Positions 821 to 62,089 of a stretch of 64,000 nucleotides of DNA are shown here, piece by piece (within the stretch, counting starts at the first letter, position 1; every line of letters begins with the position of its first letter). A model generated the notes under the pieces. That model had not been told where the DNA came from and ran no database searches. It saw nothing but the letters and a program-made list of their open reading frames with translations. The stretch is from Gari tellinella (lineage: Eukaryota; Mollusca; Bivalvia; Cardiida; Psammobiidae), in the NCBI GenBank assembly GCA_922989275.2, contig OV277861.1:18376540-18440539 (forward strand), in the 5' to 3' direction. A program made the translations under genes and the position numbers.

Positions 821-836
821 TACTGTTATATATATA

Positions 837-1520
837 TTACAGAATCGAATATAATCATTTGTCACCGGTAGAGAAACTCGTCTTTATTACAGCGGAGAAT
901 ACGCTAGTCTTTCCCAAAAAACGCCTTTATGCTAAAATCACAAATGTCAATTGAAAACTGTTTTAACTAGATCAGGCGGCGGGTAAACCTTTGGCGTCAT
1001 TGATAGTGAAAGGGTTAAAGGCAGGTGGCTATATAGCACATTATAAAAGTTAAACAAACGGTCTGAAACTTGAAGTTTCTGGTGTAGTTCTCCAACCTTG
1101 CAGTACGATTACGTCGTCATTTTAACATGATCAATGTGCCTTCCTTTAGGCTGTCATACAGTGGAGAAAACGTTATTCTTTGGCCAGCAAACGCGTTTAC
1201 GTTAAAACTGTTATTTCCAGTGCAAACAGTTTGGAGCCTGATCAGACACCGGATAACTGGGCGTCTGACTAGGCTCCAAACTGTTTGCCACTCAGATAAA
1301 AATGAAAAGTCAGAATTGTCAAAAAATTGTCCTTTTCTGTATTTAAGTGTTTTGCGTTTTCGTTTCGTTTACGTTTAAACGGAAAAGAATACAGTTTTTC
1401 TTCACTGTAGTACAGGGACTATATAATATAGGGACTTTACTGTAGAGATAACATTTCAACAAATCGGGACTTTATGCAAAGCCGAGTAAGTGGCGACTAT
1501 ATCGGTAATGGATTATATAC
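837..1520 (+). repeat. Segmental duplication, copy 2 of 3
   Basis: The left part, from TTACAGAATCGAATATAATC, matches 2975 onward; the right part matches copy 1. Copies 2 and 3 therefore share about 160 bp upstream that copy 1 lacks. It contains the second TaB copy. Confidence 0.9.
1159..1407 (+). mobile_element. TaB MITE (copy in duplication 2)
   Basis: A 249-bp TaB flanked by TA (1157-1158, 1408-1409), nearly identical to 463-710 and in the same paralogous position. The insertion predates the duplication that produced copies 1 and 2. Confidence 0.9.
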
Positions 1521-2961: not shown

Positions 2962-2974
2962 CTATTAATATATC

Positions 2975-6803: not shown

Positions 6804-6961
6804 TATTCTTCATTTCCAAATGCTAACGCCCTGCCTAGTGTAGATGGCCTGGATTGTCACGTTAGTTTTAAACCATCAACAGTCGTAATATCGTCATATT
6901 TGGAATTGTCGTCTACAACGTTTCTCAACTTAATATGTATAAATTGTCTAGTCATGAAAAC

Positions 6962-7079
6962 TTAAAGATAAGCGTCAAACAGTTTTGATCCAGATCAGAC
7001 GCCGCGTTACGCGGCGTCTGATCTGGATCAAAGCTGTTTGCAAATGCCAGCCAAATAGGAACAGCAGGCAACGGGTTAA
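6962..7079 (+). mobile_element. HpJ MITE, short form
   Basis: A 118-bp TTAA-bounded element that is mostly hairpin: TTTGATCCAGATCAGACGCC mirrored across CGCGTTACGCG. The right flank CAGCAGGCAACGGGTTAA relates it to 60363-60582. Confidence 0.8.
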
Positions 7080-8904: not shown

Positions 8905-9900
8905 CTCATACTACCTACTCCTAACGCTAACACTACCTACTCCTACTACTCCCTACCCCTACCTACTCCTAACACTACCTATCCTAATACTACCTACTCC
9001 TAATACTACCACTATATTCCTAACACTACCACTACCTAACACTACTCTACCTACCCCTACCTACTCCGAACACTACCACTACATACTCCTATCACTACTG
9101 TACCGACCCCTACCACTACCTACTCCTAACACTACTCTACCTACCATAATATTACCACTACCACTCCTAACACTACTCCTAACACTACCACTACCTACTC
9201 CTCCTAATACTACTCCTAACACTACCACTACCTAACACTACCACTACCTACTCCTAACACTACTCTACCTACCCTAATATTACCACTACCTACTCCTAAC
9301 ACTACTCTACCTACCCCTACCTACCCCTTACACTACATACCCCTACCACTACCTACTCCTTACACTACTCTACCTACCATGATATTACCACTACCTACTC
9401 CTAACACTACCACTACCTACTCCTAACACTACTCCTAATACTACCACTACCTACTCCTAATACTACCAACCCCTAATACTACCGCTACATTACTCCTAAT
9501 ATTACCAATCCATATCCCTAACACTATCACTACCGACTGCTTACACTACCTACCCCTATCACTACCACAGCGTACTCTACTTACCCCTAATACTACCTAC
9601 TAACACTACTCTACCTACCCCTAATACTATCACCACCTATTCCTGACAACCACTTCCTACTCCTAACACTACCTACTCCTGACACTACTCTACTCTACCT
9701 ACCCCTAATACTACGATTACTCTACTCCTAATACTACCTACTCCTAACACTACTCTACCTACCCATAATACTAGCACTACCTATTCCTTACACTACCAGT
9801 ACCTACTCCTTACACTACTCTACCTACCCTTAATACTACCACTATCTACTCATAACACTACCACTACCTACTCTGTCTACCCCTTATCTTAGCACTCTAC
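8905..9900 (+). repeat. Degenerate C/T/A-only satellite, about 1 kb
   Basis: An irregular array of CTACTCCTAACACTAC, CACTAC and CTACCCCTA units. The + strand is almost free of G for about 1 kb, so the - strand is G/A/T with many GG pairs. The 170-codon open frame over its left half exists because the array lacks stop codons in that frame; it is not a gene. Some units read CCCTAA, as in telomeric repeat, but the array is too irregular to call interstitial telomere. Confidence 0.9.
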
Positions 9901-10466: not shown

Positions 10467-10600
10467 TTAATCCCTTCACTGCCTTACCCCGAGTACGATG
10501 GATCTAGTTATTTGCATACAGTGTGGTTCCTGACCAGACGCCGCGTAACTAGGTATTTGGTCAGGTTCCAAACTATTTGTAACTAAGATTACAATATAGC
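10467..10600 (+). mobile_element. HpA MITE, degraded
   Basis: The left end TTAATCCCTTCACTGCC and CCCCGAGTACGATGG are intact. The hairpin is eroded (TTCCTGACCAGACGCCGCG / TTGGTCAGGTTCC). The right end is lost. Confidence 0.75.
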
Positions 10601-10896
10601 GTAAGAAAAAACAAAAATGTATTTCTACATTTTGTTGCATTTCGTTTGCGTTCTGCGCTCATCTCAATAATTCAGGCCCAAATATCTAAAACAAAAACTA
10701 CATTTGATAAATGAAACCAGAATTCGCGTATCGATGCTTCTAATGATGGTCTACTGTTTGTCAATGTCCTGCTATGTTTAAAATATACTAAATGCATTTG
10801 CAAGACCCAGTGGTCTACCCAAATTTCATAGAAGATTGGTTCATGTTTTGGTAACGAATATGAGCCACAAGGTAACGTATAACCCGCAAAGGTACT

Positions 10897-11059
10897 TAGT
10901 GACTGCCTTACCCTGAGTGCGATGGTTATTTGCAAACAGTTTGAATCCTGATCAGACGCCGCCATTTCTTAAATCAAAATACCTTAAAATTAAATTTCAG
11001 AAATAAAAGCAGACGAAAATTGTTTAAAATTGATGACGTCACGGCAGTGAAGGGGTTAA
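10897..11059 (+). mobile_element. HpA MITE lacking right hairpin arm
   Basis: The left arm runs through GAATCCTGATCAGACGCCGC and then joins directly to CATTTCTTAAATCAAAATACC, the sequence normally beyond the right arm. The right end GGCAGTGAAGGGGTTAA and TGACGTCA (11034-11041) are intact. One arm has been deleted. Confidence 0.9.
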
Positions 11060-13143: not shown

Positions 13144-13599
13144 TTAACCCTTTCATTCTTAACCCTTTACCTGATAGCCTATTTCTAGTACTTAAGATAG
13201 GTGACTACTTAAAGCAGGTTGAAAGTAAAGCAGAATGCGCCTCAGGGCGCATTCTGCTTTACTTTAAGCCTGCTTTAAGCTATCATGTGCTATAATATAG
13301 AAAATATTCCCCATAAAACATATTCATAACTGATTAAATTGGAACTATTTTCTTCAGCGGATGAATAAATCATATCCGCTAAAAGGCGCTTCTATTGGGG
13401 AAAGGTTTAATGACGTCATAAAGCGCATTTGCAAACAGTTTGAATCAAAACTATTTGCCACTTGTTCTGAAATTACGTCAGTTATACTGCCTTAAATCTA
13501 ACATTGAAACGATATTGCAAACAAAAAAATTGAAGCAGACGACAATGAAACGGTGAAAGGGTAAAAATCTCAGCATTAATTTGGCAGTGAAAGGGTTAA
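13144..13599 (+). mobile_element. HpA2 split by HpC; hairpin centre deleted
   Basis: The left end TTAACCCTTTCATTC is followed, after an HpC insertion, by TGACGTCATAAAGCGC. The hairpin has collapsed to CAAACAGTTTGAATCAAAACTATTTGCC. The right end is GGCAGTGAAAGGGTTAA. Confidence 0.85.
13159..13410 (+). mobile_element. HpC MITE, complete, innermost of nest
   Basis: A 252-bp element with TTAA at both ends. The hairpin has arms AAAGCAGGTTGAAAGTAAAG and CTTTACTTTAAGCCTGCTTT around GCGCCTCAGGGCGC. It is inserted at a TTAA of the HpA2 terminus. Confidence 0.9.
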
Positions 13600-13781: not shown

Positions 13782-14363
13782 CCAGAGCGCCCCCACACTC
13801 GTGACGAAGTTGTTCGGAAATACATTGCAACAGCACCCATTGGGAGACAATTTGTGTGCGTGTTTTTCTGAGGGAGGGAAAATTAATATTCTTAGAGTGC
13901 GTAATATTGCTAACAGTTTGAACGCGGCGGCTGATCGGGGTTCACTCGTCTTAATGTTGTTATGTGTCTGTTAACATGTCCAATAAATAATTTTGAGAAA
14001 AAAACAGCAAACGACATTTTTGTAGCAGTGAAAGCGTTAGACATCATTTCTGGTTTTGGGGAAGAGCGGCAAACATTGCCTCATAGAAGCGCCTTTTAGC
14101 ACATTTGATATATTCCTCCACTGAAGAAAATAGTTCCAATTTATACAGTCTGGAAAATGAACCATAATCTTTTTCTAAATCCTAGCAGATGATAGCTTAA
14201 AGCAGACTGAAAGTAAAGCAGAATGTGCCTTAAGGCACATTCTGCTTTACTATCAACCTGCTTTAAGTGGTCACATGTATTCAAAACTAGAAAAAGACTA
14301 TGGGGGTAATGGGTTAAAGGAGGGAATCGTTGTCCGGAGCGCCATTTTAGGGAGAGATCACTG
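13782..14363 (+). mobile_element. TaE element with HpC nested inside
   Basis: AACAGCACCCATTGGGAGAC and GAGGGAGGGAAAATTAA begin it; GGAGGGAATCGTTG...GGGAGAGATCACTG ends it. The hairpin has mostly collapsed (AACAGTTTGAACGCGGCGGCTGATCGGGG). An HpC interrupts it at 14079-14317. Confidence 0.8.
14079..14317 (-). mobile_element. HpC MITE nested in TaE
   Basis: The left end is slightly truncated (CTCATAGAAGCGCCTTTTAG); the right end is GGGTTAA. Hairpin AAAGTAAAGCAGAATGTGCC / GGCACATTCTGCTTTACT is intact. TaE sequence resumes immediately with GGAGGGAATCG. Confidence 0.85.
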
Positions 14364-16004: not shown

Positions 16005-16354
16005 CGTCGTCAAGGCCCTCAAATTAACGATTCCCTCCTTACAACAACGCTTGCCGCTTTCCCGAAACAAGACCATTATATCTAACCCTTTCACTTTTGC
16101 AATAGTTATCGTCTGATTAAAATTGTCGTCTGCTGTTTTCGTTCTCAAAGTTACATATTACAGAATGAGTCTAATGACGAGTAACAAACAACTTGAATCC
16201 AGATCAGACGCCGCGTCACGCGGCGTCTGATCTGGATTCAAGCTTTTTGCAAATGTTAGCCAAGTCTTTATTTTCCCTCCCTATAACATCTCCCTCCCAA
16301 CAACACACGCAATCTTTGTCTCCCATAGGGTGTTGTTGTAGAGAGGGAGCGATG
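16005..16354 (-). mobile_element. TaE MITE, left-truncated
   Basis: TCCCTCCTTACAACAACGC, then TCGTCTGC, then the hairpin CTTGAATCCAGATCAGACGC / GCGTCTGATCTGGATTCAAG around CGCGTCACGCG, then GGGTGTTGTTGTAGAGAGGG and GATG beside TA. Confidence 0.85.
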
Positions 16355-16646
16355 TAGTCGACAATTTTCAACAAACGATACGTCGTATAGCAGCAGCGAA
16401 AGGGATGAAAGACGTTCTAGCCGGACGTTAGCGTATATAGGACTTTCCTCCCCAGACAATACTTTGACCACACAGAGTGATTACATAATGGCCTGTAACC
16501 TTCATGTCTAGACTAATTTACTTTGTTTCAAAACGCTTCAAGCGAACAGTGCTTAGTAAAGTCTTTTATGGCCACTTACATGAAAAAATATTGATAGTGC
16601 TAAATAGGTTTAATAGCAAATTGCCATAAAGACAAGACAAGATCAC

Positions 16647-16858
16647 TCAACCCATTTGTGCCCACGGTCCTATGTATAGGACATATGTAAACAGTGTAGA
16701 CTCTGATCAGACGCCGCATCATGCTAGACTGTTTGCTGATAGTAATATTTCGATATATAGCAAAAAAAAAGAAAACTTAGACTAGGCACCCCTTAGATAG
16801 AAAATGGACTAATCCAATATATAAGCGTGGAAAAGTCCACTTTGCATAAATTGGTTAA
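16647..16858 (-). mobile_element. HpG MITE with decayed hairpin
   Basis: Ends are TCAACCCATTTGTGCCCACGG and GCATAAATTGGTTAA. The hairpin has lost most of its right arm (AGACTCTGATCAGACGCCGCATCATGCTAGACTG). TATAGGACATATG and CCAATATATAAGC are typical of the family. Confidence 0.8.
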
Positions 16859-16906
16859 TGGTGATTGTAAACAAATGGCAGGTAGCAGCAAGATGACAGA
16901 GTAAGT

Positions 16907-19567: not shown

Positions 19568-19801
19568 GGGCCGTTTCAATAAATCTTCGTACGACAAATT
19601 TTGTTGTTAGTCAGATGATAAAAGGCTCAATTATTATTTATTTGTCCATCTAAATCCTGTCTTGTGACATCACTTATTGAAAAGACAATTCCAAAGAGGC
19701 GTCACAAGACAAATATAGATAGAGAAATCAGGAATTAAATGTATTTTAAAGTTTTGACTTAAGGCATTTTTTGTCGTACTAAAGTTTATGAAACGGGCCC
19801 C
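19568..19801. mobile_element. Family H palindromic MITE
   Basis: The ends GGGCCGTTTCAATAAA and TTTATGAAACGGGCCC are mirror images, and the whole element folds on itself (ATCCTGTCTTGTGACATC / GGCGTCACAAGACAAATAT). GGGCCCGTTT termini resemble Tourist/Harbinger MITEs. Other copies are at 33767, 57211 and 61842. Confidence 0.85.
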
Positions 19802-20049
19802 TGTACATGTGAAGAGTACACATGCACCGTGAAAACAGCGAGTACACTAACCAGAGGTGTCCTGTAGGACCCCTTTGGCCAGGGTCTGCACGTTTTGTCA
19901 TTATTAGTTTTCGCAATATATAGTTAAAGTCGACACTGAACAGTCTCAAATGAACTACGCTTTATTTGAATTTGGAACCATCCACTAAAAGTATCAATGG
20001 TGAATGTCTTCCAAGTACATGTAACTGAAGAGGGCTTTCCCTTTTGCTC

Positions 20050-22218: not shown

Positions 22219-22471
22219 TTAACCCTTTCCCTTATAGAAGCGACTTTTAGCACATTCATTTTATTCATCCGCTGAAGAAAATAGTTCCAAATTATACCGT
22301 AATGAATATGTGTCATATTTAATACTTTCCTGATTCTAGCAGTTAATAGCTTAAAGCAGGCTGAAAGTAAAGCAGAATGCGCCTTAGGGCGCATTTTGCT
22401 TTACTTTCAACCTGCTTTAAGTAGTCACATATCTTCAATACTAGAAACAATGCTATCAGGTAAAGGGTTAA
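22219..22471 (-). mobile_element. HpC MITE, complete
   Basis: TTAA at both ends; ends TTAACCCTTTCCCTTATAG and CTATCAGGTAAAGGGTTAA. The hairpin AAAGCAGGCTGAAAGTAAAG / CTTTACTTTCAACCTGCTTT is complete around GCGCCTTAGGGCGC. A good reference copy for the family. Confidence 0.95.
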
Positions 22472-25236: not shown

Positions 25237-25662
25237 TTAACCCATTCAATGCCATGACGCCATCAATGTTACAGTGGAGAATCTGTTATTCTTTCCCAAT
25301 AAACGCGTTTACGCTAAAACTATTATTTGCAGTGCAAACGGTTTGGAGCCAGATCAGACGCCGGGTAACCCGGCGTCTGATCAGGCTCCAAACTGTTTGC
25401 CACCAAGATAAACAAGAATTATCAGAATTGTCCAAAAGTTGTTCTTTTCTACGTTTTAGTGCTTTGCGTTTGCGTACGTTTGCGTTTAAACGGGAAAGAA
25501 TAACAGATTCTCCACTGTAAACAACTGTCGTCTGTTTTTATGTCTCAAATTCAAATTAAAGGAATTATGACTTAAGATATATTCAAATGAGTGCCAAACA
25601 GTTTGGATCAAAACGGTTTGCAAATAACTTTTGTACTCGGGGTAAGGTAGTGAAGGGGTTGA
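25237..25662 (-). mobile_element. HpA MITE with TaB inserted; hairpin centre deleted
   Basis: TTAACCCATTCAATGCCATGACG starts it. A TaB interrupts at TA, and AACAACTGTCGTCTG resumes, exactly as in the uninterrupted copy at 59056-59272. Its hairpin has collapsed to CAAACAGTTTGGATCAAAACGGTTTGC. The end is GTAGTGAAGGGGTTGA. Confidence 0.9.
25272..25517 (+). mobile_element. TaB MITE, young copy
   Basis: 246 bp, TA at 25270-25271 and 25518-25519. By eye nearly identical to 12784-13029 and 56191-56436, including the same hairpin mismatch. Confidence 0.95.
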
Positions 25663-30695: not shown

Positions 30696-31079
30696 TTATA
30701 AGTTAAATCGGTAAACTGGTAACTACATTGTACTGTAAATACTATAATTATTAATAGAACATTGGGTTATAATCAAATTAATCATACGATGTATAAACAA
30801 AGTACATGTAGTTACTTAAATGTCGGGTTTTGATATGACATATCTAACATCTGATTGAATATTGAAACTCATGAAGTAATTAATTGTCCAAACTGAAGCA
30901 TGGTTAGTCTATAAAAATACATAAACAGTGTTTTAAACCACTTATACTGAAAATAATCTTTTTTGGAATGCAATATTTTCTATATAAAAAAGTATCGTTT
31001 TAACCAGTTATCCTTATATCGAGTTCTTTATCAAATATTAGTATATGAATACAGAAATATTTACAATGGTTGTGTTTAA

Positions 31080-31413
31080 CGACACCAAGTGGGAGACACA
31101 GATTGTGTGTGTTGTTCGGAGGGAGTCGTTACAGAGAGGGAAATTAAGACTTGGCTTACATATGCAAACAGCTTGAATCCATATCAGACGCCGCGTAACG
31201 CGGCGTCTGATCTGGATTCAAGCTGTTTGTCACTCGTTATTATATTTATTCGATCAAAATCTCCACTTGTATGTATTGTAACTATTAAAAAAATCAGCAG
31301 ATAAACTTGCAGCATTAAAAGCGTTAAACATAATTGTCCTGTTTAGGGAAATGCGACATGGGTCGTTATAAGGAGGGATTCGTTGGAAGGGCCGTTGTAG
31401 AGAGGGAACGCTG
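31080..31413 (+). mobile_element. TaE MITE, left-truncated
   Basis: ACACCAAGTGGGAGACACAG, then GGAGGGAGTCGTTACAGAGA, hairpin CTTGAATCCATATCAGACGC / GCGTCTGATCTGGATTCAAG around CGCGTAACGCG, then GCGTTAAACATAATTGTCC, and the end GTAGAGAGGGAACGCTG before TA. Confidence 0.9.
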
Positions 31414-31599
31414 TAATGATGATGTAATGGATAGTTGTGTGTTGTTGTTTCGTCTGAATTACTTTATGTTCTAACTTATTATTATTAAAGCTCAAACAGT
31501 TCTTAGCTCGCCGGACGAATGTCCAGGATAGTTTATATGCCACCCGGTCTTTGACGACGGCGTTCTTGTTCCTATTGCCTAGCCGTTCGCGTTAGCCCT

Positions 31600-33766: not shown

Positions 33767-33997
33767 GGGGCCCGTTTTATAAAACTTCGTACGACAAAAA
33801 TGGTCGTAAGTCAGATTCTAAAATTGTCGATAATCATTTATTTCTCCATCTAATCCTGTCTTGTGGCATCTCTTTGGAATCGTCTTAAAAAAGACGATCC
33901 AAGGAGATTTCACAAGACTGGATTAGATAGACAAATCAGAAATTAAATGTATTTTAAAGTTTTGACTAACGACCGTTTTTTTTATGAAACGGGTCCC
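33767..33997. mobile_element. Family H palindromic MITE
   Basis: GGGGCCCGTTTTATAAAACT to ATGAAACGGGTCCC, with inner arms AATCCTGTCTTGTGGCATCT / AGATTTCACAAGACTGGATT. The centre TCGTCTTAAAAAAGACGA is itself symmetrical. Confidence 0.9.
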
Positions 33998-33999
33998 TG

Positions 34000-35115: not shown

Positions 35116-35700
35116 AGTGGAGATGATGTTATTCTTTAAAAAATAAACGCTTTTGTGCTTAAACATTGACAGTGTTCCATCCCTACAACAGCCCTCCCTA
35201 TAACGACTCCCTCATTACAACGACCCTTGCCGTAATTCCCTAAACAGGACAATTTGGCTAACACTTTTACTGCTGCAATATCGTCTACTTAAATTTTTGT
35301 CAGCTGTTTTTTCTTAAAGTTACATATAAGTGGACATTTTGATAGAACAAGTATAATGACGAGTGACAAACAGCTTGAATCCAGATCAGTCGCCGCGTTA
35401 TGCGGCGTCTGATCGGGATTCAAGCTATTTGCAAATGTAAGCCAAGTCTTAATTTTCCCTCCCTATAACGACTCCCGCCGAGCAACACATACAATCTGTG
35501 TCTCCTATTGAGTGTTGTTGTAGAGGTAGAGAGGGGGCAATATATATTCATTGCAAACGCTGGCAGTGACAAGACTCCAAACTGTTTGCATATCAAACTA
35601 TTGTGAGAAAGTTACAAAAACAGGTCATTTTCTAGATGTCATTCCATTGAGCTTGTAGTAAGTTTTGTTTTTAAAGGAAATAATAACGTTTTCAAAACTG
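35116..35700 (+). mobile_element. TaB element split by TaE
   Basis: Left CAGTGGAGATGATGTTATTC and AATAAACGC; after the TaE insertion it resumes at ATTGCAAACG and ends AATAACGTTTTCAAAACTG before TA. The TaB hairpin has lost its stem (GCAGTGACAAGACTCCAAACTG). Confidence 0.8.
35170..35542 (-). mobile_element. TaE MITE nested in TaB
   Basis: CAGTGTTCCATCCCTACAAC at left, hairpin CTTGAATCCAGATCAGTCGC / GCGTCTGATCGGGATTCAAG, TGTTGTTGTAGAGGTAGAG at right. Confidence 0.85.
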
Positions 35701-36385: not shown

Positions 36386-36563
36386 ATAAAAGGAACATTA
36401 CTATACTTTGCATATCGTATGCACCGGATCACTCTCGTTGTGTGTGTAAAGGCGATATCCAACTCGACCTTCGGTCTTCGGTCCCGTTGGATATCGCCTT
36501 TACACACACAACTCGAGTGATCCGGTGCATAAGATATGCAAAGTATAGTAATGTTCCGTTTAT
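36386..36563. repeat. 178-bp near-perfect palindrome
   Basis: GGAACATTACTATACTTTGC is mirrored by GCAAAGTATAGTAATGTTCC; inner arms GTAAAGGCGATATCCAAC / GTTGGATATCGCCTTTAC; loop CTTCGGTCTTCGGTC. It sits immediately upstream of a TaE. Two overlapping open frames of 100 and 117 codons cross it and are artefacts of the symmetry. Confidence 0.95.
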
Positions 36564-36588: not shown

Positions 36589-36940
36589 CAGTGCTCCTTC
36601 TCTACAACAACACCTAACGGCAGACAAAGAATGTGTGTGTTGTTCGGATGGAGTTGTTATTGGGAGGGACATTGGTTTAAATTTGCAAACAGCTTGAATC
36701 CAGATCAGACGCTGCGTAACACGGCGTCTGAGCTAAATTCAAGCTGTTTGCCACTCGTCATTATGTATTCTTCTGTCAAAAAGTCCATTATGTGACGACA
36801 GCTGACGACAATTTAAACAGACGATTTATTGCAACCGTTAAAAGGTTGGACATAATTGTCTTGTTTGGGGAACAGTGACAAGCGTTGTTGTAAGGAGGGA
36901 GCCGTTGTTGGACGGGCTGTTGTGGTGAGAGAGCACTATG
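36589..36940 (+). mobile_element. TaE MITE, complete
   Basis: 352 bp between TA dinucleotides. CAGTGCTCCTTCTCTACAAC to GAGAGAGCACTATG. Hairpin CTTGAATCCAGATCAGACGC / GCGTCTGAGCTAAATTCAAG slightly eroded. It contains AACCGTTAAAAGGTTGGACA, an HpA-like 3' end, in its interior. Confidence 0.9.
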
Positions 36941-38458: not shown

Positions 38459-38674
38459 TTAACCCCTTCGTTGTCTTACCCCGAGTACACCGATAATTTG
38501 CAAACAGTTTGGATCCTGATCAGACGCCGCGTATAGCGGCGTCTGATCAGGATTCAAACTGTTTGCCACTCATATCAGTATTTCTTAAGTCAAAATACCA
38601 AAAATTCAAATTGAGAAATAAAAGCAGACGACAATTGATTAAACTGGATGACGTCATGGCAGTGAAGGGGTTAA
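38459..38674 (+). mobile_element. HpA MITE, reference copy
   Basis: 216 bp with TTAA at both ends: TTAACCCCTTCG...GGCAGTGAAGGGGTTAA. The hairpin at 38500-38566 has a 31-bp arm, CAAACAGTTTGGATCCTGAT onward, and a 4-5 nt loop. TGACGTCA is at 38649-38656. Confidence 0.95.
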
Positions 38675-39330: not shown

Positions 39331-42220
39331 TTAATTCCAAATTTACTGTCTGCCAATTCGTCACCTGATTGCCAATTTCTGTGTTAATACTATATGTATT
39401 TTCGCTAGCGAATCTCAGAATACGTTACAGTGTTCCCCCTCTACAACAACACCCAGTTGGAGACAAAAATTGTGTGTGTTGTTCTGAGAGTGTTGTTATA
39501 GATAAGGACATTTTCTTACCATTGCAAACAGCCTGAATACAGATCAGACGCCGAGTTACCCCTCATCCGGACCTTGCAAAAACTTTCGTTTTGAGACCTA
39601 TTGTGCATTTTTGTTGTTTTTCTAAGTCAAGATAGGCATTTGTGACATAACTGATACGGCATTATAAATTGGTGTGTTTATGCTATATGGTAGTGATAAA
39701 ACCAAAACGTTGCTATCACTGTTACCATGGCAACCAGTGACCATAGTAACACAAAAACTACGTTTATTTGCTGTAAAATCGAATTTTATCTAATAACTTG
39801 TACAGGAAAATGTACCTATAGAGAAATGTGGACATATTTATGACCAGATATACCTTTTGTTACATTATTGGTGTACCTTTCACAGAACTATGTAAATATT
39901 TGGAAGAAAATGACAAAAATATGGTTGGGGTCCAGTGGACCTCAAATAATATTTATTCATATTAACATGGGTTACTATACAACTTTTAACCACAACTGAT
40001 TTAATTAGTGTAATATGTGTAACCAAAACAGCTTCCCAGCTGATTAATATCGTCAATTTGTTAAGCTTTGTTTCTGCTTCCAATTATTTCATAGCAATAG
40101 TTGTCCAATTTATTTGACCTGTCACCGTGCATGTCTTAGCTCCGTGCAAGAATCATGACGCTGACACTGATACAGTGGTATGTCAAATATAATGTGATAA
40201 ACTAAGTATGGTAAACAAATTTAATGAAAGTAACACACACATAACTTCAAATGGTGAAGATATAAGAGTTTTGAATATGAATTGCTTAACACCATGTCTT
40301 GAGTACTACTCGTAACTATGTCTACTTCACATCATCACATGTCTGATGAGCTGCATGATAGTGTCCTAGACGCAGTTACAGGAGTAACCACGGTCCGTTT
40401 TGGCCAATGGTCTACACCAGATTTTTGTATCACTGTAATGATCTATGATTTGAGGTTTCCTGCAATCATCATATATTACATTAGTTTTGATTCATGAATG
40501 AAATAACAAGAAATGATATCAAACATTGGGTTAAGCCGCTGCTGATCAAGCGTTTGCCATACATCCTAACTGGAGCATGTTTGTCTGTTGTATGTCTTTT
40601 TCGGCGGAGCTGAATAGTTTCTTATTCAGCACAATTCCTTATAAGGCCCAACCAATGGTGAATGACCAGAAATGTAAGCTTACAGACACGTGCTTAAAAT
40701 CGAATAGTCTGATTGGGTAGCGGCCAGACTTGTCTACTCACTTTTACAAATTTGTAAAATAAGAGACACAGACTTTTATAGGCTGATTTGCTATGTAGCG
40801 GCACCAGTAGTAAATACGACTTTCCGCTACTGCTAGTGAGTTACAAAAAAAATGTATAATCGAGACATTTTACGTGTCCCGACCGTTCGGTAGTGAATTG
40901 AATGACATAGTGTTTCTATTTTAAGATATGACATATTGTCTCAAGTTCGGCTATGATTTGATGCATTCTGCAAATCAGAACGAAATTGGTCATCATAGAC
41001 TGGATCATAATTTCGATTTTGTACCAAGTGTATGAAAAAGAACGAATAACAGTAACAATTTAGTGAGATTCCGAGAAAACTGGCGTTTTAATATAACCTG
41101 GATATCGAAAAGATTTCGGGCATGGTGGGTATATTTTGTGTTAACACCGTTTTCCTCGAACGCATGCGCAACTCTGTGACCTCAAATGTAAACAAATCGT
41201 GCATTTGTTTTCAACAGCGATCGAATCTCTTGGTTAAATGCAAAAACCCAACAACACGCATATACCTAAAACGTACATTGCTACACTTTGCAGATATTCT
41301 TATAATAAATCAGAACATAGAACTAACTCTACAAGACAAATTCCATACACGAATTCTTGAAGCGGACACTCGCTTTGTTTACCGGTGGCAACATGAATTT
41401 CTCATTTGAGGGATCGTTTCAAACAATTCACATTCGGCATATTTCGGGGGTGCTTTCCAAAAATCTCAAATCAAAATCAGGTAATTGAGAATATTTAAAC
41501 AATCAAACCATATTTAAAATTATAAGCAACTAACAAAAGAGCACACACATACGGATTGTAGTAATTTATGGTATCTACAAATTACAAAATAAAAATGATA
41601 CATGTAGATCTAGACATGGAAGTATAATTCCGTGATCTAGACCTGTCTTTAAAAAATCTCATCATTTTCAGTTACATTCTAGGAAGAAATAAGTGCAATT
41701 CAATTGGCTTATAAAGATGGGAGTGGAAAGTTGAATTTTGTCCCCTGTGCACCAAGCAGTAGATCCATGTGCAAACTGTACCTTCTGTCAAGAATTTTCA
41801 AGTAAATCTCTCTACAACCACCTCTGAAAAAGAACTTATTGATGGAATAAAAACAGCTGACAAACAGCTGACAACTTCCAGCAAAATGTAGCCCGATCTA
41901 AAGCATAAACGTTTGTAAATGCTCTCTGCTGTACTTTCACCTTCAGTCTTTGAGAGACAAACTGCCTTAACAAACAAATGATTCAAGACTTTTCCTCAGT
42001 CCATTGAGGGACTCCCCCCACATTGTCTCGATAGTGTGAGAATTTAACTGACAAAGCGTGCATCACAACCAGTTTACCTGGTGAAGCCCAGATTATACTC
42101 ATGCTCTAGTGATTTTCAATGGTTATTTCTAACCAAACCAGGGCTGCCATAAGTTGAAAAAGAAAATCCTAAGATTTCAAAATATTCAATTTTTCAAGCG
42201 CGATTTTCCGAATTATACCT

Positions 42221-42350
42221 TTAATCCATAATCTGTTTCTAGTTTTTTAAGACACGTGATGCTTAAAGCAGGTTGAAAATAAAGCAGAATGCGCTTATAG
42301 TGCATTCTGCTTTACTTTCAGCCTCCTCTAAGCTTCCATCTATTCGAATA
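42221..42350 (+). mobile_element. HpC fragment inside the 3.9-kb element
   Basis: TTAATCCATAATCTGTTTCTAG, hairpin AAAGCAGGTTGAAAATAAAG / CTTTACTTTCAGCCTCCTC around GCGCTTATAGTGC; the right end is lost. Confidence 0.8.
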
Positions 42351-42890
42351 AAAATCCGAAGATTTCGGAAAAATCCGGAGAAATGGCAGCCCTGCCAAAC
42401 TATCAAATATAAAGGTCGCGTCTCACATGAGAAGCTCCAATGGTTCTTTGCTACCTACATGTCCACAAGACCCATGCTTTTTGCAAGGAAATTATCTGGC
42501 AATGCGTTATGATCAAAAGGTCGCCAGGAGATGTCTTTAACCTCAGATCCAGTAGTTTAATGATTGAATAAATTAATTATTGGCGACTCTCAAGACCTTC
42601 AGTCTTTGATTATATGTATGTTGTCGTAGATTACTGCGCGTATTTTATTAGATAAATATTGAGCTTAATATCCTGATTTACCATCCTATTTATTGCAATT
42701 CCTGAATAAAATCAATTCCATATACATCATTACCTTCACCACCCATTACACCGAATATCTTTTTTAAAGATATTTCTTGTTTCCCTTGTAGCTATATAGT
42801 TGAATCTGATATACTGAAAATGGCACTGAAGCATTGAAATAGACGCCTTAAATTCTTACCGACCAGACCTCGTTGGCAAACGTTCAATAG

Positions 42891-42908
42891 GGTCAAGGTC
42901 AAAGGTCA
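42891..42908 (+). promoter_or_regulatory. Direct-repeat AGGTCA (DR1) motif
   Basis: GGTCAAGGTCAAAGGTCA contains two perfect AGGTCA half-sites one base apart (42896-42901, 42903-42908) and a third imperfect one. DR1 is a known nuclear-receptor site; occupancy here is speculative. Confidence 0.35.
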
Positions 42909-43598
42909 ATGTCACCAATCTTGGCCCATGACTGCTATGGAAACTTCCAGAAAGGACCAGAACCAAATTTAATACAGTACACTTGTTTGAATCTTGAAAT
43001 AATTTGCATAATTTGATTCAGATAGAATTGTATTCATTCCATACAGTGTGAATCCGTTGGACTCGCGGTTTGCGCTACGGGATATTATAATATCCAAGGG
43101 AAATAACTCAATTACAAGATCGTGAAAGATATATTTTGATATGTGCAATGGAGGAAAAGTTTTGGTAGGTTTATCAAGTATTCAATAGATGCCATTTTTG
43201 CAGTTGTAAACAAAAAGGATCGGTTTAAAATGGCCTGACATACATTTCACTAATCTTTAGAATTATAAGGTCCGGCTGGACCCCAGACGTGTTTTGAAAA
43301 TAAAATCTATGCGAAATGACCTGTTTAGTACGTATTTCACACTAATGTCAAAATCAGCCATGGGAACAATGTCTAAAAACGTCATAAGCGTGATTAGGCT
43401 GAATACTTTTTTTCTAGCAAAAATAAAGTCGCCGGGGTCCAACGGACACCAAAGGTCCGGATGAGGGTTAAGCGGCATCTGATATGGATTCAAGATGTTT
43501 GTCACTCATCATTATATTTTTTTTCTGACAACATGTCCAATATATAACAGCAGACGACAATTTCAAGCAGACGATATTGCACCCGTGAAAAAGTACTA

Positions 43599-43804
43599 CA
43601 GTAAAACCTCTCTATTACGACCACTAAATTATGTTAATTATTATGGTGTTTACGATAGGTGACCGCTTAAAGCAAGGTGACAGTGAAACAGAAAGCTCCT
43701 TTAGGAGCTTTCTGTTTCACTGTCACCTTGCTTTAAGCTGTCACCTGTCTATTAAACAATCAATTAGCCTTCGTTTTAGTGGTCGTTATAGAGAGGTTTT
43801 ACTG
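43599..43804 (+). mobile_element. TaD MITE, complete, nested in TaE
   Basis: 206 bp between TA dinucleotides (43597-43598, 43805-43806). Ends CAGTAAAACCTCTCTATTAC and TTATAGAGAGGTTTTACTG; hairpin 2 arms perfect around GCTCCTTTAGGAGC. Confidence 0.95.
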
Positions 43805-43956
43805 TATTTGTCTTGTTTGGGGAGCAGCGGAAAACATTGTTGTAACGAGGGAATCGTTGTTCAGAGTGTCGTTGTCGAGTGGCAACACTGTATTGCTTAT
43901 TGTTTGTAAAGGAAATCTCAACAAAAATATACTGCAATAAGATGTGAAAAAACATA

Positions 43957-47319: not shown

Positions 47320-47782
47320 TTAACTCCTTAACCCTTTGAACCCTAGTCCCGCATATAGGCGTGCTTTTCAAACAGTGTACATGTGAATAGTACACATGTC
47401 CTATACAAACAGTGAAGACCCAGATCAGAGGGCTCCGAAAGGAGCCCTCTGATCAGGGTCTTCACTGTTTGTCACAATGCCAAACATTGACAAAAACAAC
47501 CCTTTAAAGTCAGAAATGGACTAGACTTAGATGGAAACTGGAATTGTCCATTTAAAGTTTCAGGGAGGAGAGAGTTAACTTCCATGACGTCATCGGCTTA
47601 AAACAATTATCGTCTGCTTTCATTTCTCAAATCTTATTTACAGATAATTTCACTTAAGTAACATCATAATGAGTATCAAACAGTTTGGATCCTGATCAGA
47701 CGCCGCGTTACGCGGCGTCTTATCATAATCCAAACTGTTTGCAAAGTACCATTATACTCGGGGTAAGGCAGTGAAGGGGTAA
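47320..47782 (-). mobile_element. HpA MITE with HpF inserted in its terminus
   Basis: The left end reads TTAACTCC, then HpF, then TTAACTTCCATGACGTCATC. Removing HpF restores TTAACTCCTTAACTTCC, a good HpA end (TTAACCCCTTCACTGCC). Hairpin GGATCCTGATCAGACGCCGC / GCGGCGTCTTATCATAATCC; right end GGCAGTGAAGGGGTAA. TGACGTCA at 47585-47592. Confidence 0.9.
47328..47578 (+). mobile_element. HpF MITE, reference copy, nested in HpA
   Basis: 251 bp, TTAA at both ends. TTAACCCTTTGAACCCTAG to TCAGGGAGGAGAGAGTTAA. Hairpin CCCAGATCAGAGGGCTCC / GGAGCCCTCTGATCAGGG around GAAA. Confidence 0.95.
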
Positions 47783-49097: not shown

Positions 49098-49304
49098 TTA
49101 ACCCATTTACGCCCAGTGGAATATTCCATGGTTATATATTGGATTAGTCCATTATTTATCAAAGGGATGCCTGGTCAAACTTTTCATTTTCATTTTGTTT
49201 TATATTGTAGACTCTGATCAGACACCACATAATGCGGCGTCTGATCAGAGTCTACACTGTTTGCCTATGTCCCATATATGGGATCGTGGGCACAAATGGG
49301 TTAC
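49098..49304 (+). mobile_element. HpG MITE, reference copy
   Basis: 207 bp, TTAACCCATTTACGCCCAG to GTGGGCACAAATGGGTTA. Hairpin AGACTCTGATCAGACACCAC / GCGGCGTCTGATCAGAGTCT around CATAATG. CCCATATATGGG is a second small palindrome. Confidence 0.9.
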
Positions 49305-50173: not shown

Positions 50174-50419
50174 TTAACCCTTTAACTCTTAATGACGCCT
50201 AAAGGCGCGTTTGCATCAGTTTGGATCCTGATCAGACGCCGCGTAACGCGACGTTTGATCAGGATCCAAACTGTTTGACATTCTTTTTGAAATTTCGTCA
50301 GTAATTCTGCCTTAAATTTAACTTTGAAACGATATTGCAGACAACAATATTGAAGCAGACGACAATGAAACGGTGAAGGGGTGAAATTCTCAGGATTTCT
50401 TTGGCAGCGAAAGTGTTAA
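50174..50419 (+). mobile_element. HpA2 MITE, reference copy
   Basis: 246 bp, TTAA at both ends. TTAACCCTTTAACTCTTAATG to GGCAGCGAAAGTGTTAA. Hairpin GGATCCTGATCAGACGCCGC / GCGACGTTTGATCAGGATCC. Contains GATATTGCAGACAACAATATT and GGTGAAGGGGTGAAATTCTC. Confidence 0.95.
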
Positions 50420-51729: not shown

Positions 51730-52370
51730 TTCTAAATGAGCCGGAGTTGATGTCTGTATTAGCGTGTATGCACGGTGCATACTCGGGTTTCGGTTTCACT
51801 AATTGAAACAAATACTTCGTTTAATCTGATCTGCCTACTAATTAAATCCATTTTCTTCAATTAGGTTCACTGCAATGTTTAGACATAAATGTGTTATTTT
51901 GAGCGACAAGTGTCTGTATAAACACTCGGTGTGTTGCCTTAACTGTGTAAAAACATCATATATCATGGACGAAATCAGCGAAAATAGACAGGTAAACATT
52001 ACACTTGCGGGTCTATGTGTCAGATAGAGTGTTCTGGGGTGAGATTATGTTGTAGCCTTAAAGCATTAGTGTTTATTGTTTTGATTTTTGTTTTTTATTT
52101 CTTCAAATAATTGATTCCTGATACCCATGTTGGTTTTTGACAATAATATTGTGCAATATTCAATCCATTTGTACCTACCTGGTACCTGGGCCCCGTAACT
52201 CTTGTAAGGGTCGTTGGCCCGGGTACCGCAACATAGGCTTTCTAATCAACGTTTTCCTCTTATCTGTCTTTAGCTAAAGCTGGTGTCCATTCCTCAATGC
52301 TGTCCGCCTATGTCTTTTTTTGTCGTCTCCGGTGTCTGTTTCCTTCAATGGTGCCTTGAAGGATTGGTGC
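51730..52370. other. No gene recognised
   Basis: Open frames are short. GGTACCTGGGCCCCGTAACTC with GGCCCGGGTACCGCAAC (about 52180-52230) forms an imperfect inverted repeat of unknown meaning. Confidence 0.35.
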
Positions 52371-52377
52371 CTAGCGT

Positions 52378-52575
52378 CTCATAAAAGGGACATAGGCAAA
52401 CAGTGAAGACTCTGATGCGGCGTCTGATCAGAGTCTACCCTGTTTGCTGATATGAATTTCAATATGAAACAAAACGAAAATGAAAATACCAGGAATCCGT
52501 CATAATTATCAAAATTGGACTTATCCAATATATAAACATGGAAGAATCAACTTAGCATAATTGGATTAATACGAA
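52378..52575 (-). mobile_element. HpG MITE with damaged hairpin
   Basis: AAAGGGACATAGGCAAACAG, GACTCTGAT-GCGGCGTCTGATCAGAGTC (about 10 bp of the left arm lost), CCAATATATAAACATGG, GCATAATTGGATTAA. Confidence 0.8.
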
Positions 52576-52619
52576 CGTTCATTACTGAAAACACGTAAAG
52601 GAGCTTTCATGTTGCTTAG

Positions 52620-52845
52620 AATAAAAAAGCGAGCATACTAGTCGTTTACAAAGAGTGTACCTGAGAAGGGTACATTTGTCATATGCAAACGGTGAAAGCT
52701 CAGATCAGAGGGAGTCATTTGACAAGAGTCTTCACTGTTTGTTATTCTGCAATATATTGTAGAAAATAACACTTAAATCATGGACTTCACTTCATTGGAA
52801 ACTGAAAGTGTCCATTTAAACGATCAGGGTGAAAAGGTTCAGTTT
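52620..52845 (+). mobile_element. HpF, degraded
   Basis: AAAGAGTGTACCTGAGAAGG, CTCAGATCAGAGGGAGTCATTTGACAAGAGTC, GGAAACTGAAAGTGTCCATTTAAA. Confidence 0.75.
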
Positions 52846-56166: not shown

Positions 56167-56781
56167 CAGTGATCCCTTCCTACAATGGTACAGTGGAGAA
56201 TCTGTTATTCTTTCCCAATAAACGCGTTTACGCTAAAACTATTATTTGCAGTGCAAACAGTTTGGAGCCAGATCAGACGCCGGGTAACCCGGCGTCTGCT
56301 CAGGCTCCAAACTGTTTGCCACCAAGATAAACAAGAATTATCAGAATTGTCCAAAAGTTGTTCTTTTCTACGTTTTAGTGCTTTGCGTTTGCGTACGTTT
56401 GTGTTTAAACGGGAAAGAATAACAGATTCTCCACTGTACTCCGAAAAACGCCCCCTCCTTACAACAACGTTTGTCGCTCTTCCCCAAACGATACAGTGCT
56501 GTAATATCGTCTGCTTAAAACTGTCGTCTACCGATGTTTCTCAAAGTTACATATTTTACATTTTGATAGAACAAGCATAATAACGAAAGACAAACAGCTT
56601 GAACCCAGATCAGACGCCGCGTTACGCGGTGTCTGATCTGGATTCAAGCTGTTTGCAAATGTAAACCAAGTCGTTTTTAGTTCTCTAAGGATATTAACTT
56701 TCCCTCACTTTAACAACTTCCTCCGAAAAACACATACAGTCTGTGTCTCCCATTGGGTGTTGTTGTAGAGAGGGAGCCCTG
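56167..56781 (-). mobile_element. TaE nested in TaB and itself split by TaB
   Basis: CAGTGATCCCTTCCTACAATGG, then the inner TaB, then CTCCGAAAAACGCCCCCTCC, hairpin CTTGAACCCAGATCAGACGC / GTGTCTGATCTGGATTCAAG, then GTTGTTGTAGAGAGGGAGCCCTG. Confidence 0.85.
56191..56436 (+). mobile_element. TaB MITE, young copy, innermost
   Basis: 246 bp between TAs (56189-56190, 56437-56438), near-identical to 25272-25517. Confidence 0.95.
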
Positions 56782-57210: not shown

Positions 57211-57442
57211 ATGGGTCCGTCTTACGAAACGTCGCACGACAAAAACGTTCGTAAGTAAAAACCTATAAAATACATCTAATCTCGGATTTCTCTTATCTAA
57301 TCCTGTCTAGTGATATCTCTTCGGAAGACGATTCCAAAGAGATGTCACAAGACAGGATTAGACGGAGAGATCATAAGTTAGATGTATTTATTTTAAAGTT
57401 TTGACTTACGACCGTTTTTGTCGTACCACGTTTCTTAAGACC
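57211..57442. mobile_element. Family H palindromic MITE, old
   Basis: GGGTCCGTCTTACGAAACG to CGTTTCTTAAGACC; inner arms CTAATCCTGTCTAGTGATATCT / AGATGTCACAAGACAGGATTAG. Confidence 0.85.
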
Positions 57443-58324: not shown

Positions 58325-58464
58325 TGTTAACAGCAACTTTAAGCAGACGACATTGCAGCAGTAAAAGCGTTAGACATAAATGTTCTATTTAGGGAACTGT
58401 GGCAAGTGTCGTTGTAATGAGGGAGTCGTTGTTGGGAGGGCCGTTGTAGAGAGGGAGCGCTGTA
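58325..58464 (+). mobile_element. TaE right half
   Basis: AAGCAGACGACATTGCAGCAG, GCGTTAGACATAAATGTTC, end GTAGAGAGGGAGCGCTG before TA. Left half and hairpin absent. Confidence 0.85.
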
Positions 58465-59923: not shown

Positions 59924-60295
59924 GTGATGTCTCTCTCATAGGACCACTATAAAGAATGATATTGTTCTGTAATTAAGACAGGTGACTGCTTAAAGCAGGT
60001 TGAAATCTGTTTTAAGCTGTCATCTGTCTTTAACTCTAATCTTGCTGTAAAAACAAAGTCTGCTTCGAAATTGTCGTCTGCAAAATTTGATAAATTTAGA
60101 TTTATAAAATCATTTTGTAAGTGATGATACCTAAAGACGAGTATCAAATAGTTTGAATCCAGATCAGACGCCGCGTTACGCGGTGTCTGATCTGGATCCA
60201 AACTGTTTGCAAAATTCAGTAAAGTAGCGATCAGCTGGTAAAGGGTTAAAACATAAACGAGTCTTATTTCGAGTTGTCGGTATAACGAGATACCT
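59924..60295. mobile_element. TaD element, hairpin collapsed, split by HpJ
   Basis: CAGTGATGTCTCTCTCATAGG, GACAGGTGACTGCTTAAAGCAGGTTGAAA-TCTGTTTTAAGC (centre lost), then HpJ at a TTAA, then AACGAGTCTTATTTCGAGTTGTCGGTATAACGAGATACC. Confidence 0.7.
60029..60249 (+). mobile_element. HpJ MITE nested in TaD
   Basis: 221 bp, TTAA at both ends. TTAACTCTAATCTTGCTG, TCGTCTGC, hairpin TTTGAATCCAGATCAGACGC / GTGTCTGATCTGGATCCAAA around CGCGTTACGCG, right CAGCTGGTAAAGGGTTAA. Confidence 0.9.
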
Positions 60296-61841: not shown

Positions 61842-62084
61842 GGGGCCCGTTTCATAAAACTTCGTACGACAAAAACGATCGTAAGTCTAAACTTTAAAAT
61901 ACATTTAATTTCTGATTTCTCTATCTAATCCTGTTTTGTCACATAAATTTGGAATCGTCTTTTCAAGACGATTCCAAAAATATGTAACAAGACAGGATTA
62001 TTTGGAGAAATAAATAATTATTGAGACTTTTATAATCTGACTTACGACAACTTTTGTCGTAAGAAGTTTTATGAAATGGGCCCC
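61842..62084. mobile_element. Family H palindromic MITE, reference copy
   Basis: 243 bp. GGGGCCCGTTTCATAAAACT to AGTTTTATGAAATGGGCCCC; centre TGGAATCGTCTTTTCAAGACGATTCCA. Confidence 0.95.
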
Positions 62085-62089
62085 TGTAG

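What the first reader, a model, noticed from the sequence alone, without database searches (positions are those of the whole stretch)
38459..38674. One hairpin module shared by transposon families with unrelated ends
The stem built on CAAACAGTTTGGATCCTGAT-CAGACGCCG sits in TTAA/CCC elements (HpA 38459-38674, HpA2 50174-50419, HpJ 60029-60249, HpG 49098-49304, relative in HpF 47328-47578). It also sits in TA/CAGT elements (TaB 25272-25517, TaE 36589-36940). Seen: the same stem between different terminal repeats and target types. Known: TTAA and TA are signatures of piggyBac and Tc1/mariner enzymes. Inferred: the hairpin is a transferable module, retained because it helps replication, repair or silencing escape of its carrier. 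A previously undescribed mode of MITE evolution is possible.
Basis: partly seen in the sequence, partly recalled or inferred. Interest (0 to 1): 0.88.

Follow-up and report, generated by a model that had tools for sequence, protein, structure and literature searches.

The report
Hairpin core shared by unrelated transposons
In this 1.6-billion-base genome the same DNA hairpin sits inside miniature jumping genes whose ends belong to two different target types (TTAA and TA), probably because such elements jump into one another and are then copied as one, and the hairpin would then be a portable part that likely helps its carrier move; related cases are already in print.

Summary
All seven named elements carry a near-perfect hairpin, and the stems tested are homologous across TTAA/CCC and TA/CAGT elements. 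The window has 55 long hairpins; eight shuffles gave none.

The pattern is wider than reported. A second, unrelated core also occurs in both end types, so two cores and two end types give all four combinations, in the window and in a random 200-kb sample. One class I arm matches about 340,000 times per strand genome-wide.

Mechanism differs by family. In T2 (TaE) a TTAA element appears lodged inside a TA element; the shared block includes 71-107 bp of flank, and the same junctions recur in several copies. T1 (TaB) shares only the hairpin plus about 6 bp; how it got there is unresolved. One mosaic locus joins P1 and T1 sequence.

Pairing is kept between families (5 two-sided changes, 1 one-sided) but decays in copies (19 against 229). 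Selection on moving lineages and templated arm correction both fit. A functional role is inferred.

Conserved cores under differing ends (coral CMITE) and composite MITEs (CMITE-IN, MER6) are published. One core across two target types, twice, was not seen in nine searches of an open-licence library.

The parts
38459..38674 (+). HpA, family P1: TTAA/CCCC ends, class I hairpin
38500..38566 (+). class I hairpin core of HpA (67 nt)
50174..50419 (+). HpA2, family P2: TTAA ends, class I hairpin; by eye its right end extends beyond a P1-like end
60029..60249 (-). HpJ, family P6: TTAA/CCC ends, class I hairpin
49098..49304 (+). HpG, family P4: TTAA/CCC ends, shortened class I hairpin
47328..47578 (+). 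HpF, family P3: TTAA/CCC ends, diverged class I hairpin
25272..25517 (+). TaB, family T1: TA/CAGTGGAGAA ends, class I hairpin; nested in a P1 element (about 25238-25661)
36589..36940 (+). TaE, family T2: TA/CAGTGCTCC ends around a lodged TTAA-type hairpin element
31078..31418 (+). T2 copy that keeps TTAA at both inner junctions (31134-31165 left, 31309-31338 right)
35171..35530 (-). T2 copy; both junction patterns match
16014..16356 (-). T2 copy; both junction patterns match
56447..56777 (-). T2 copy; longer sequence between the left TTAA and the hairpin, right part damaged
13826..14078 (+). T2 copy with damaged hairpin
58332..58461 (+). T2 right-end fragment with the right junction
6868..7079 (-). 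P5: TTAA/CCCG element; hairpin and left edge resemble the core of T2 by eye, right flank not detectably alike
10467..10721 (+). mosaic locus: P1 left half and hairpin, T1 right-flank sequence, then P1 right flank
888..1018 (+). T1 left half and left arm joined near the hairpin apex to an inverted P2 left end (duplicated at 3026-3157)
43599..43804 (-). G1: TA/CAGTAAAACCTCTCTAT ends with class II hairpin; inserted in a T2 copy
22219..22471 (-). G2: TTAA/CCCTTTACC ends with class II hairpin
13159..13410 (+). G2 copy inserted in the left end of a P2 element, TTAA on both sides

Best explanation
These are miniature transposons in which one homologous ~67-bp hairpin core sits between ends of different target type (TTAA/CCC and TA/CAGT), and the core likely passes between end types when one element jumps into another and the composite is then copied as one. 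Shown in sequence: homologous stems; both target types; a second, unrelated core with the same two end types; in the TA family T2 a block with TTAA edges, hairpin and flank of the TTAA families, with the same junctions in several copies; further cases of one hairpin MITE inside another; one mosaic locus. Inferred: that this T2 block is an inserted TTAA element; that nesting with erosion of the inner ends also made T1 and G1, where no inner end is recognised; that lineages which keep amplifying keep the stem paired because it helps them; and that it would help by folding out as a hairpin or cruciform and drawing the two ends together for whichever transposase acts. The last step is the least supported.
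For: Stem homology across 7 class I families, 21 of 21 pairs, z 5.8-22.8. Class II arms of G1 (TA) and G2 (TTAA), z 11.1; class I and II not convincingly related (14 pairs, best z 3.0). T2 right flank matches P1 over 71 bp, P2 over 107, P6 over 80, 0 of 200 shuffles each. T2 junction patterns: 4 right and 3 left in the window, at 4 of the 8 T2-derived loci I count there; 5 right and 5 left in 224 kb of other genome sequence, 24 kb of which was fetched because it holds the class I arm. Further nesting: T1 in P1, G2 in P2, G1 in T2. Random 200 kb: class I 63 hairpins, 20 with TA ends, 3 TTAA, 40 undecided; class II 46, 11 TTAA, 5 TA (one an outer T1 pair), 30 undecided; 600 random positions 17 TA, 7 TTAA. 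Pairing: family consensuses differ by 5 two-sided and 1 one-sided distinct changes, copies by 19 two-sided paired and 229 one-sided (plus 12 two-sided unpaired) (p 2.8e-5); G1 versus G2 6 and 0, copies 9 (6 paired) and 65. The end of L034 aligns with class I MITE L019:9213-9312 over 39 columns, 0 of 500 shuffles as high (pair chosen after seeing the ends).
Against: T2's left inner junction has TTAA but no CCC motif, so the inner element's left end is worn or truncated. T1 and G1 show no recognisable inner end (by eye; G1 has a TTAA on the right but no GGG beside it). Changes shared by two or more copies within a family are no more two-sided than private ones (3 of 48 against 16 of 200), and recent T1 copies have a fixed A-A mismatch at pair 18, so pairing is not strictly required. 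In class II the number of pairs with two-sided changes, 9 of 34, is reached by 35 of 500 shuffles, and further pair types by 493 of 500. Half-swaps are rare: 1 of 40 window loci, none in 60 sampled loci, though the P1 left-end model found nothing in that sample, so P1/T1 mosaics could not show there. No exact autonomous partner was found for P1, P2, T1, T2 or G1, from 12 and 4 loci read. No expression or transposition data.
Confidence: 0.58

Rival explanations
1. Passenger core: the hairpin does nothing. It was carried along by nesting and founder effects, and the arms stay matched because one arm templates repair of the other (quasi-palindrome correction, recalled mechanism).
For: Private two-sided paired changes exist in single copies (16; the mosaic locus has its own matched pair change, read), as templated correction would give. 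Within-family shared changes show no excess of two-sided ones. Hairpins are deletion-prone: 9 of 13 gaps of 12 bp or more in 37 loci fall in the 27% of bases that are hairpin, p 0.0018.
Against: If correction were common in resident copies they should not be dominated by one-sided changes (229 against 19). Two unrelated cores in the same two end types, and hairpins of all classes at 0.74 per kb in random sequence, look like more than founder luck.
Confidence: 0.32
2. All families descend from one ancestor and their ends diverged gradually.
For: Hairpin orientation, apex (GTAAC in most) and the CACTC-like right edge are shared by T1, T2, P1 and P2.
Against: T2 holds a TTAA-family block up to a P1-like terminus inside TA ends. 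T1 and T2 hairpins do not group as one clade (AU p 0.034; weak: 67 columns, 2 starred branches, and the same test gave p 0.018 against T1 alone, probably because one unassigned row falls among them). A second core repeats the pattern.
Confidence: 0.04
3. The hairpin is itself a tiny mobile palindrome that inserts into other MITEs.
For: In T1 the shared block is almost exactly the hairpin.
Against: In the rows it has the same orientation relative to its CACTC-like flank in T1, T2, P1 and P2, and in T2/P1/P2/P6 the flank is shared too. I noticed no solo hairpin with its own target duplication, but did not search for one.
Confidence: 0.08
4. The stem acts as RNA, for example as a source of small RNAs, as Made1 MITEs gave human mir-548.
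For: Long stems; two-sided changes fit RNA as well as DNA pairing. Made1/mir-548 is published (PMC1784062, start of abstract seen in a search listing).
Against: No Rfam match in the window. No expression data. It does not explain why the same core sits with two end types.
Confidence: 0.1

Closest known systems
CMITE and CMITE-IN of Acropora corals (PMC2872659; abstract, first part of Results, CMITE-IN section and Discussion read)
   Same: MITE families with TTAA duplication and CC[C/T]T ends, different TIRs around a conserved interior; a new mobile element (CMITE-IN) made by insertion of one element into another; linked to piggyBac-like transposons of the same genome.
   Different: The CMITE families are TTAA elements of about 100 bp with a 75-bp interior. 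Here one interior spans TTAA and TA ends, it is a near-perfect hairpin, and a second core repeats the pattern.
MITE-like repeat of the clam Lucina pectinata (PMC4732748; passages and one section read)
   Same: 210-bp element with 30-bp TIRs and a 77-bp central palindrome (96% self-complementary), much like G1 in size and plan; similar fragments in other molluscs. A second 92-bp repeat there has a 68-bp self-complementary part.
   Different: One TIR family is described; no target duplication identified; no exchange of cores in the parts I read. Its sequence is in a figure I could not compare.
MER6 with V highly conserved domain (PMC6887750; passages read)
   Same: A conserved module entered a Tc1/mariner MITE by insertion (a SINE) and spread with it; module exchange is mentioned as a hypothesis for such SINE domains.
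   Different: Module from a SINE, not a hairpin; one host element.
mPing/Stowaway internal regions (PMC9921582; abstract and passages read)
   Same: MITE interiors raise or lower transposition; the authors suggest interiors may bring the TIRs closer together.
   Different: The paper does not use the words hairpin or secondary structure; one transposase system.

Membership tests
piggyBac-type MITE (P1-P6, G2) | TTAA target site kept at both ends | tested here: met
   P3 4 of 4 rows, HpA, HpA2 and 2 of 3 G2 rows show TTAA at both ends; others have one worn end or were cut off-register. TTAA as piggyBac hallmark: PMC2872659.
piggyBac-type MITE (P1-P6, G2) | CC[C/T]T at the termini | tested here: met
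   TTAACCC[CT]TT in P1, P3, P6, G2 and some P2 copies; second ends vary, e.g. TTAACTCTTTC.
piggyBac-type MITE (P1-P6, G2) | ends match an autonomous piggyBac element of the same genome | tested here: inconclusive
   86 DDE_Tnp_1_7 matches, 20 of them near full length without stops. Of 12 loci fetched, 5 have clear TTAACCC ends, 2 weaker pairs, 5 none found. Class I MITE L019:9213-9312 aligns with L034's end over 39 columns; no exact partner for P1, P2, P3, P5, P6 or G2 among them.
Tc1/mariner- or pogo-type MITE (T1, T2, G1) | TA target duplication | tested here: met
   8 of 9 T1 rows (two of the 8 are one segmental duplicate; the ninth was cut off-register) and 4 of 7 G1 rows (the other 3 cut off-register) are flanked by TA on both sides. 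T2 ends are imperfect.
Tc1/mariner- or pogo-type MITE (T1, T2, G1) | CAGT-type termini matching an autonomous element of the same genome | tested here: inconclusive
   DDE_1 loci L042 and L043 have TA/CAGTAGAAC and TA/CAGTCGAAC inverted ends (2 of 4 loci fetched; the other two may be cut short); similar in kind to G1, but no exact partner.
CMITE-like group (conserved core, differing TIRs) | interior more conserved between families than the ends | tested here: met
   arms z 5.8-22.8 in all 21 class I pairs; of 144 end pairs only pairs among TTAA families and T2-G1 reached 1 of 200 shuffles or fewer, the last no better than chance for that many pairs.
CMITE-like group (conserved core, differing TIRs) | all families TTAA | tested here: not met
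   T1 and G1 are TA elements. So not filed as CMITE.
CMITE-like group (conserved core, differing TIRs) | homologous core sequence to coral CMITE | not tested
   CMITE sequence is in a figure; not compared.
Composite TE made by nesting (T2) | inner element with its own termini inside outer termini, shared by copies at different sites | tested here: inconclusive
   Flank homology, TTAA on both sides in one copy, P1-like right terminus and recurrent junctions fit; the inner left end lacks the CCC motif and no empty T2 was found.

The most novel reading that the evidence does not exclude
The hairpin is a portable transposition aid that works with unrelated transposases: two independent hairpin cores each colonised both piggyBac-type and TA/CAGT-type elements, and hairpin-cored MITEs then filled this genome (about 0.74 hairpins of all classes per kb in a random sample).
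Probability: 0.3. Interest if true: 0.85.

Novelty: new variant of a known kind. Interest (0 to 1): 0.62.

Why it matters
MITEs reach very high numbers with no genes of their own, and why some succeed is an open question. Here is a natural experiment: the same core under two end types, and two cores under the same pair of end types, in one genome with open frames of two transposase kinds. That makes the claim 'the interior, not the ends, drives success' testable by swapping cores between ends. It also shows MITE families being built as modules, with some of the joints visible.

Tried and rejected
Outside copies: exact core patterns in IMG/VR contigs and in GTDB genome contigs gave 0; two translated hairpin ORFs found no protein candidates. 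Six stem strings searched in the paper library: 0. Rfam on the window: 0 matches. Pfam on 10 window ORFs: nothing over a curated cut-off. The organism was not identified; bivalve-like architecture (PMC4732748) is a resemblance only.

Hairpin-only transfer for T2: rejected, its flank is shared too. Relatedness of class I and class II cores: not supported. Homology of T1's right flank to P families beyond about 6 bp: not found. P5 as the direct source of T2's core: not supported, the right flanks are not detectably alike (17 of 100 shuffles as high). Hairpin-apex crossover as the general mechanism: not supported; one mosaic in 40 window loci and none in 60 sampled, and its first switch point lies anywhere between the hairpin and 10,622, because the profile match and the jumping alignment place it differently. 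Such a locus could also come from nesting followed by deletion between hairpins. Strict selection on every copy: rejected.

Caveats on counts: family consensuses come from few copies. The undecided hairpins (40 class I, 11 of 12 class I3, 30 class II) mean that the end rule misses worn ends, not that ends are absent. In one search four of 44 pairs were reverse-strand TIR artefacts and were dropped, leaving 40. In one search the one locus with halves of different families (L027, T1L/T2R) reads as T1 nested in T2; 11 of 60 were flagged as hairpin-shortened and I read one (L024:1698) as having an intact hairpin; the P1, P5 and P6 left-end models found nothing there. One search kept only ungapped hairpins at least 72% like the family consensus, skipped the outermost pair, and left P5 (1 copy) out; P3 is in its copy counts but not in the family comparison. 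T1a was dropped from copy counts as a segmental duplicate of T1b. Eight of 37 window loci carry hairpin deletions, each with its own breakpoints. The left-flank likeness of G1 and G2 (1 of 200 shuffles, one of 36 pairs) and the end likeness of T2 and G1 (1 of 200, one of 144 pairs) are weak for that many comparisons.

Full report
WHAT IS THERE. The window is 64,000 bases at C6:18,376,540-18,440,539 of a 1.598-Gb assembly. It has only two ORFs of 150 aa or more, both under 171 aa, no Rfam match and 55 hairpins with at least 16 net paired bases, against 0 in each of 8 dinucleotide shuffles. The seven elements named in the finding are present at the stated places. One arm of the class I stem, at 2 or fewer mismatches, matches 340,127 times forward and 340,177 times reverse in the genome; the reversed-pattern control gives 1 and 1. 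As each intact hairpin gives one match on each strand, this points to some hundreds of thousands of hairpins (inference).

FAMILIES. Flank comparison and alignment give these class I families: T1 (TaB; TA/CAGTGGAGAA, about 246 bp, 8 rows, two of them one segmental duplicate), T2 (TaE; TA/CAGYGCTCCCTCTCTACAACAAC, about 350 bp), and the TTAA/CCC families P1 (HpA), P2 (HpA2), P3 (HpF), P4 (HpG), P5 (6868-7079) and P6 (HpJ). Class II has a different stem, CTTAAAGCA..., in G1 (TA/CAGTAAAACCTCTCTATAACGACC) and G2 (TTAA/CCCTTTACC). A third stem (G3) lies in elements with GGGCCCGTTTCATAAA-like ends.

ARE THE STEMS HOMOLOGOUS? Yes. Left arms of all 21 class I family pairs tested beat 300 shuffles (z 5.8 to 22.8), and G1 with G2 gives z 11.1. 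P4 was not in that test. None of the 14 class I-class II pairs is convincing (best z 3.0, T2-G2, 7 of 300). Of 144 end pairs, those reaching 1 of 200 shuffles or fewer are pairs among TTAA families (G2 included) and one TA pair, T2-G1, CCTCTCTAYAACRAC, which is weak for so many comparisons. So each of two unrelated cores sits in both end types. A random 200-kb sample (20 stretches of 10 kb) repeats this: class I 63 hairpins, 20 TA, 3 TTAA, 40 undecided; class I3 (P3-like) 12, 1 TTAA, 11 undecided; class II 46, 11 TTAA, 5 TA (one an outer T1 pair), 30 undecided; 600 random positions 17 TA, 7 TTAA.

HOW THE CORE CHANGED ENDS: T2. The right flank of T2 matches P1 over 71 bp, P2 over 107 bp and P6 over 80 bp, 0 of 200 shuffles each. 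By eye it runs on to GCAGCAGTRAAAGNGTTA, like P1's terminus GGCAGTGAAGGGGTTAA (in P2 the like stretch lies inside the present end), and only then into T2's own arm. On the left the junction is GGGAAAATTAA|GACTTGG; it has TTAA but no CCC. The copy at 31,078-31,418 keeps TTAA at both junctions. I count 8 T2-derived loci in the window (5 rows, plus 13,826-14,078, 39,434-43,889 and 58,332-58,461); junction patterns match at 4 of them (4 right, 3 left). In 224 kb of other genome sequence 5 right and 5 left junctions match; 24 kb of that was fetched because it holds the class I arm. The five window rows have different outside flanks. The simplest reading is a TTAA element inserted in a TA element and copied with it. 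P5, a TTAA element, has a hairpin and left edge like the T2 core by eye, but its right flank is not detectably alike; the hairpin tree does not reject T2+P5+P6 (AU p 0.38) and has little support.

NESTING IS COMMON. T1 lies in a P1 element (about 25,238-25,661), with TA on both sides. G2 lies in a P2 element (13,159-13,410), with TTAA on both sides. G1 lies in T2 (43,599-43,804). A ~3.9-kb insertion with CCCTCATCCGGACC ends (TTAA on the right, TTAC on the left) splits the hairpin of that T2 copy (39,556-43,471).

T1 AND G1 ARE NOT EXPLAINED THE SAME WAY YET. T1 shares only the hairpin and CACTCA with P1. G1 and G2 share the stem and, weakly, AAGA[CT]AGGTGAC on the left. No inner terminus is recognised by eye. 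Possible routes are nesting with erosion, or repair switching between elements. One locus, 10,467-10,721, is P1, then T1 right-flank sequence, then P1 again (T1 part E 5.2e-5, P1 left 8.4e-5, second P1 part 0.057 for a search of 128 kb; two-reference alignment 200 against 147 for P1 alone, seven control loci gained 0 to 8). The first switch point is uncertain. At 888-1,018 (duplicated at 3,026-3,157) a T1 left half runs into an inverted P2 left end near the apex, at a shared GGCGTC (read). Such loci are rare: 1 of 40 window loci has halves of different families, and none in 60 sampled, where the P1 left-end model found nothing.

IS THE HAIRPIN MAINTAINED? In alignments, 90.7% of class I cells (29 rows) and 92.3% of class II cells (13 rows) pair, and the covariation score exceeds all 500 shuffles in both. 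Pairs with two-sided changes are 11 of 32 (2 of 500 shuffles as high) and 9 of 34 (35 of 500); further pair types are 12 of 500 and 493 of 500. Between family consensuses, changes are mostly two-sided: T2 against P1 3 and 0, T1 against P1 2 and 1, P6 against P1 1 and 0, which I reduce to 5 two-sided and 1 one-sided distinct changes. Within families 99 hairpins show 19 two-sided paired, 12 two-sided unpaired and 229 one-sided changes (Fisher 5:1 against 19:229, p 2.8e-5). G1 against G2 differ by 6 two-sided and 0 one-sided, copies by 9 (6 paired) and 65. So founding lineages keep the stem and resident copies lose it. Against a strict need: changes shared within families are no more two-sided than private ones (3 of 48 against 16 of 200), and recent T1 copies share an A-A mismatch. 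Long gaps concentrate in the hairpin (9 of 13 in 27% of the bases, p 0.0018), as expected of an unstable palindrome.

ENZYMES. The genome has 86 DDE_Tnp_1_7 matches, 20 near full length without stops, and 150 scored DDE_1 matches (of 486 candidates), many open. Of 12 DDE_Tnp_1_7 loci read, 5 have clear TTAACCC ends. L034/L036 have TTAACCCTTAGACCGCCACTC; the class I MITEs at L019:9209 and L024:1038 have TTAACCC[TA]TAGCCTGCCACTC, and L019's end aligns to L034's over 39 columns, score 39 against a maximum of 35 in 500 shuffles (pair picked after seeing the ends). Two of four DDE_1 loci have TA/CAGT[AC]GAAC inverted ends. So both end types resemble, in kind, those of two enzyme families present here. 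Exact partners remain unknown. The link TA/CAGT to pogo or Tc1 is recalled, and supported here only by those two loci.

LIKELY WORKING (INFERRED). A part that serves two unrelated transposases must act on something general. The simplest idea is mechanical: a folded-out stem shortens the path between the ends of a short element and eases their pairing. mPing work proposes that interiors may bring TIRs closer (PMC9921582). Passenger status with templated arm correction is the main rival.

PRIOR ART. Seen in print: coral CMITEs and CMITE-IN, a clam MITE with a 77-bp central palindrome, MER6 with a SINE module. Nine paper searches listed no report that I recognised as one hairpin core across TTAA and TA families; I saw listings, not full texts, and the library holds only open-licence papers, so this is weak evidence of novelty.

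Noticed in passing
window 39556-43471: A ~3.9-kb insertion with CCCTCATCCGGACC inverted ends (TTAA right, TTAC left) sits inside the hairpin of a T2 element; no Pfam domain in the one ORF of it that was scanned.
   Followed up: partly
window 307-829 and 990-1526; 820-1160 and 2959-3305: Local duplications (94.6% and 92.2% identical) that duplicate T1 and the T1/P2 junction, so these copies are not independent insertions.
   Followed up: partly
window 8894-9895: Tandem-like block with many self-matches of 71-75% identity.
   Followed up: no
window 36386-36563: A very long hairpin (84-bp arms) that does not look like classes I-III, just left of TaE.
   Followed up: no
window 57213-57441, 61842-62088, 19568-19805, 33769-33999: Family G3: GGGCCCGTTTCATAAA-like ends and a third kind of central hairpin (ATCTAATCCTGTCTTGTGACATC).
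   Followed up: partly
L010, L015, L019, L023, L025 and others in the random sample: A fourth hairpin class (CTATGGTGTCACTACTCATTAGAATCGTCTC), 9 copies in 200 kb by the rule; end type not found.
   Followed up: no
window 16600-16860, 52320-52620, 10894-11058, 13432-13599, 25511-25661: Copies with one arm or the centre of the hairpin deleted, with different breakpoints.
   Followed up: partly
window 50174-50419 and other P2 copies: P2's right end looks like a P1-like end followed by a second, outer TTAA end, as if the element gained a new terminus outside the old one.
   Followed up: no
G000: Several open DDE_Tnp_1_7 and DDE_1 frames with identical scores on different contigs, which suggests recent activity of both enzyme families.
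   Followed up: partly
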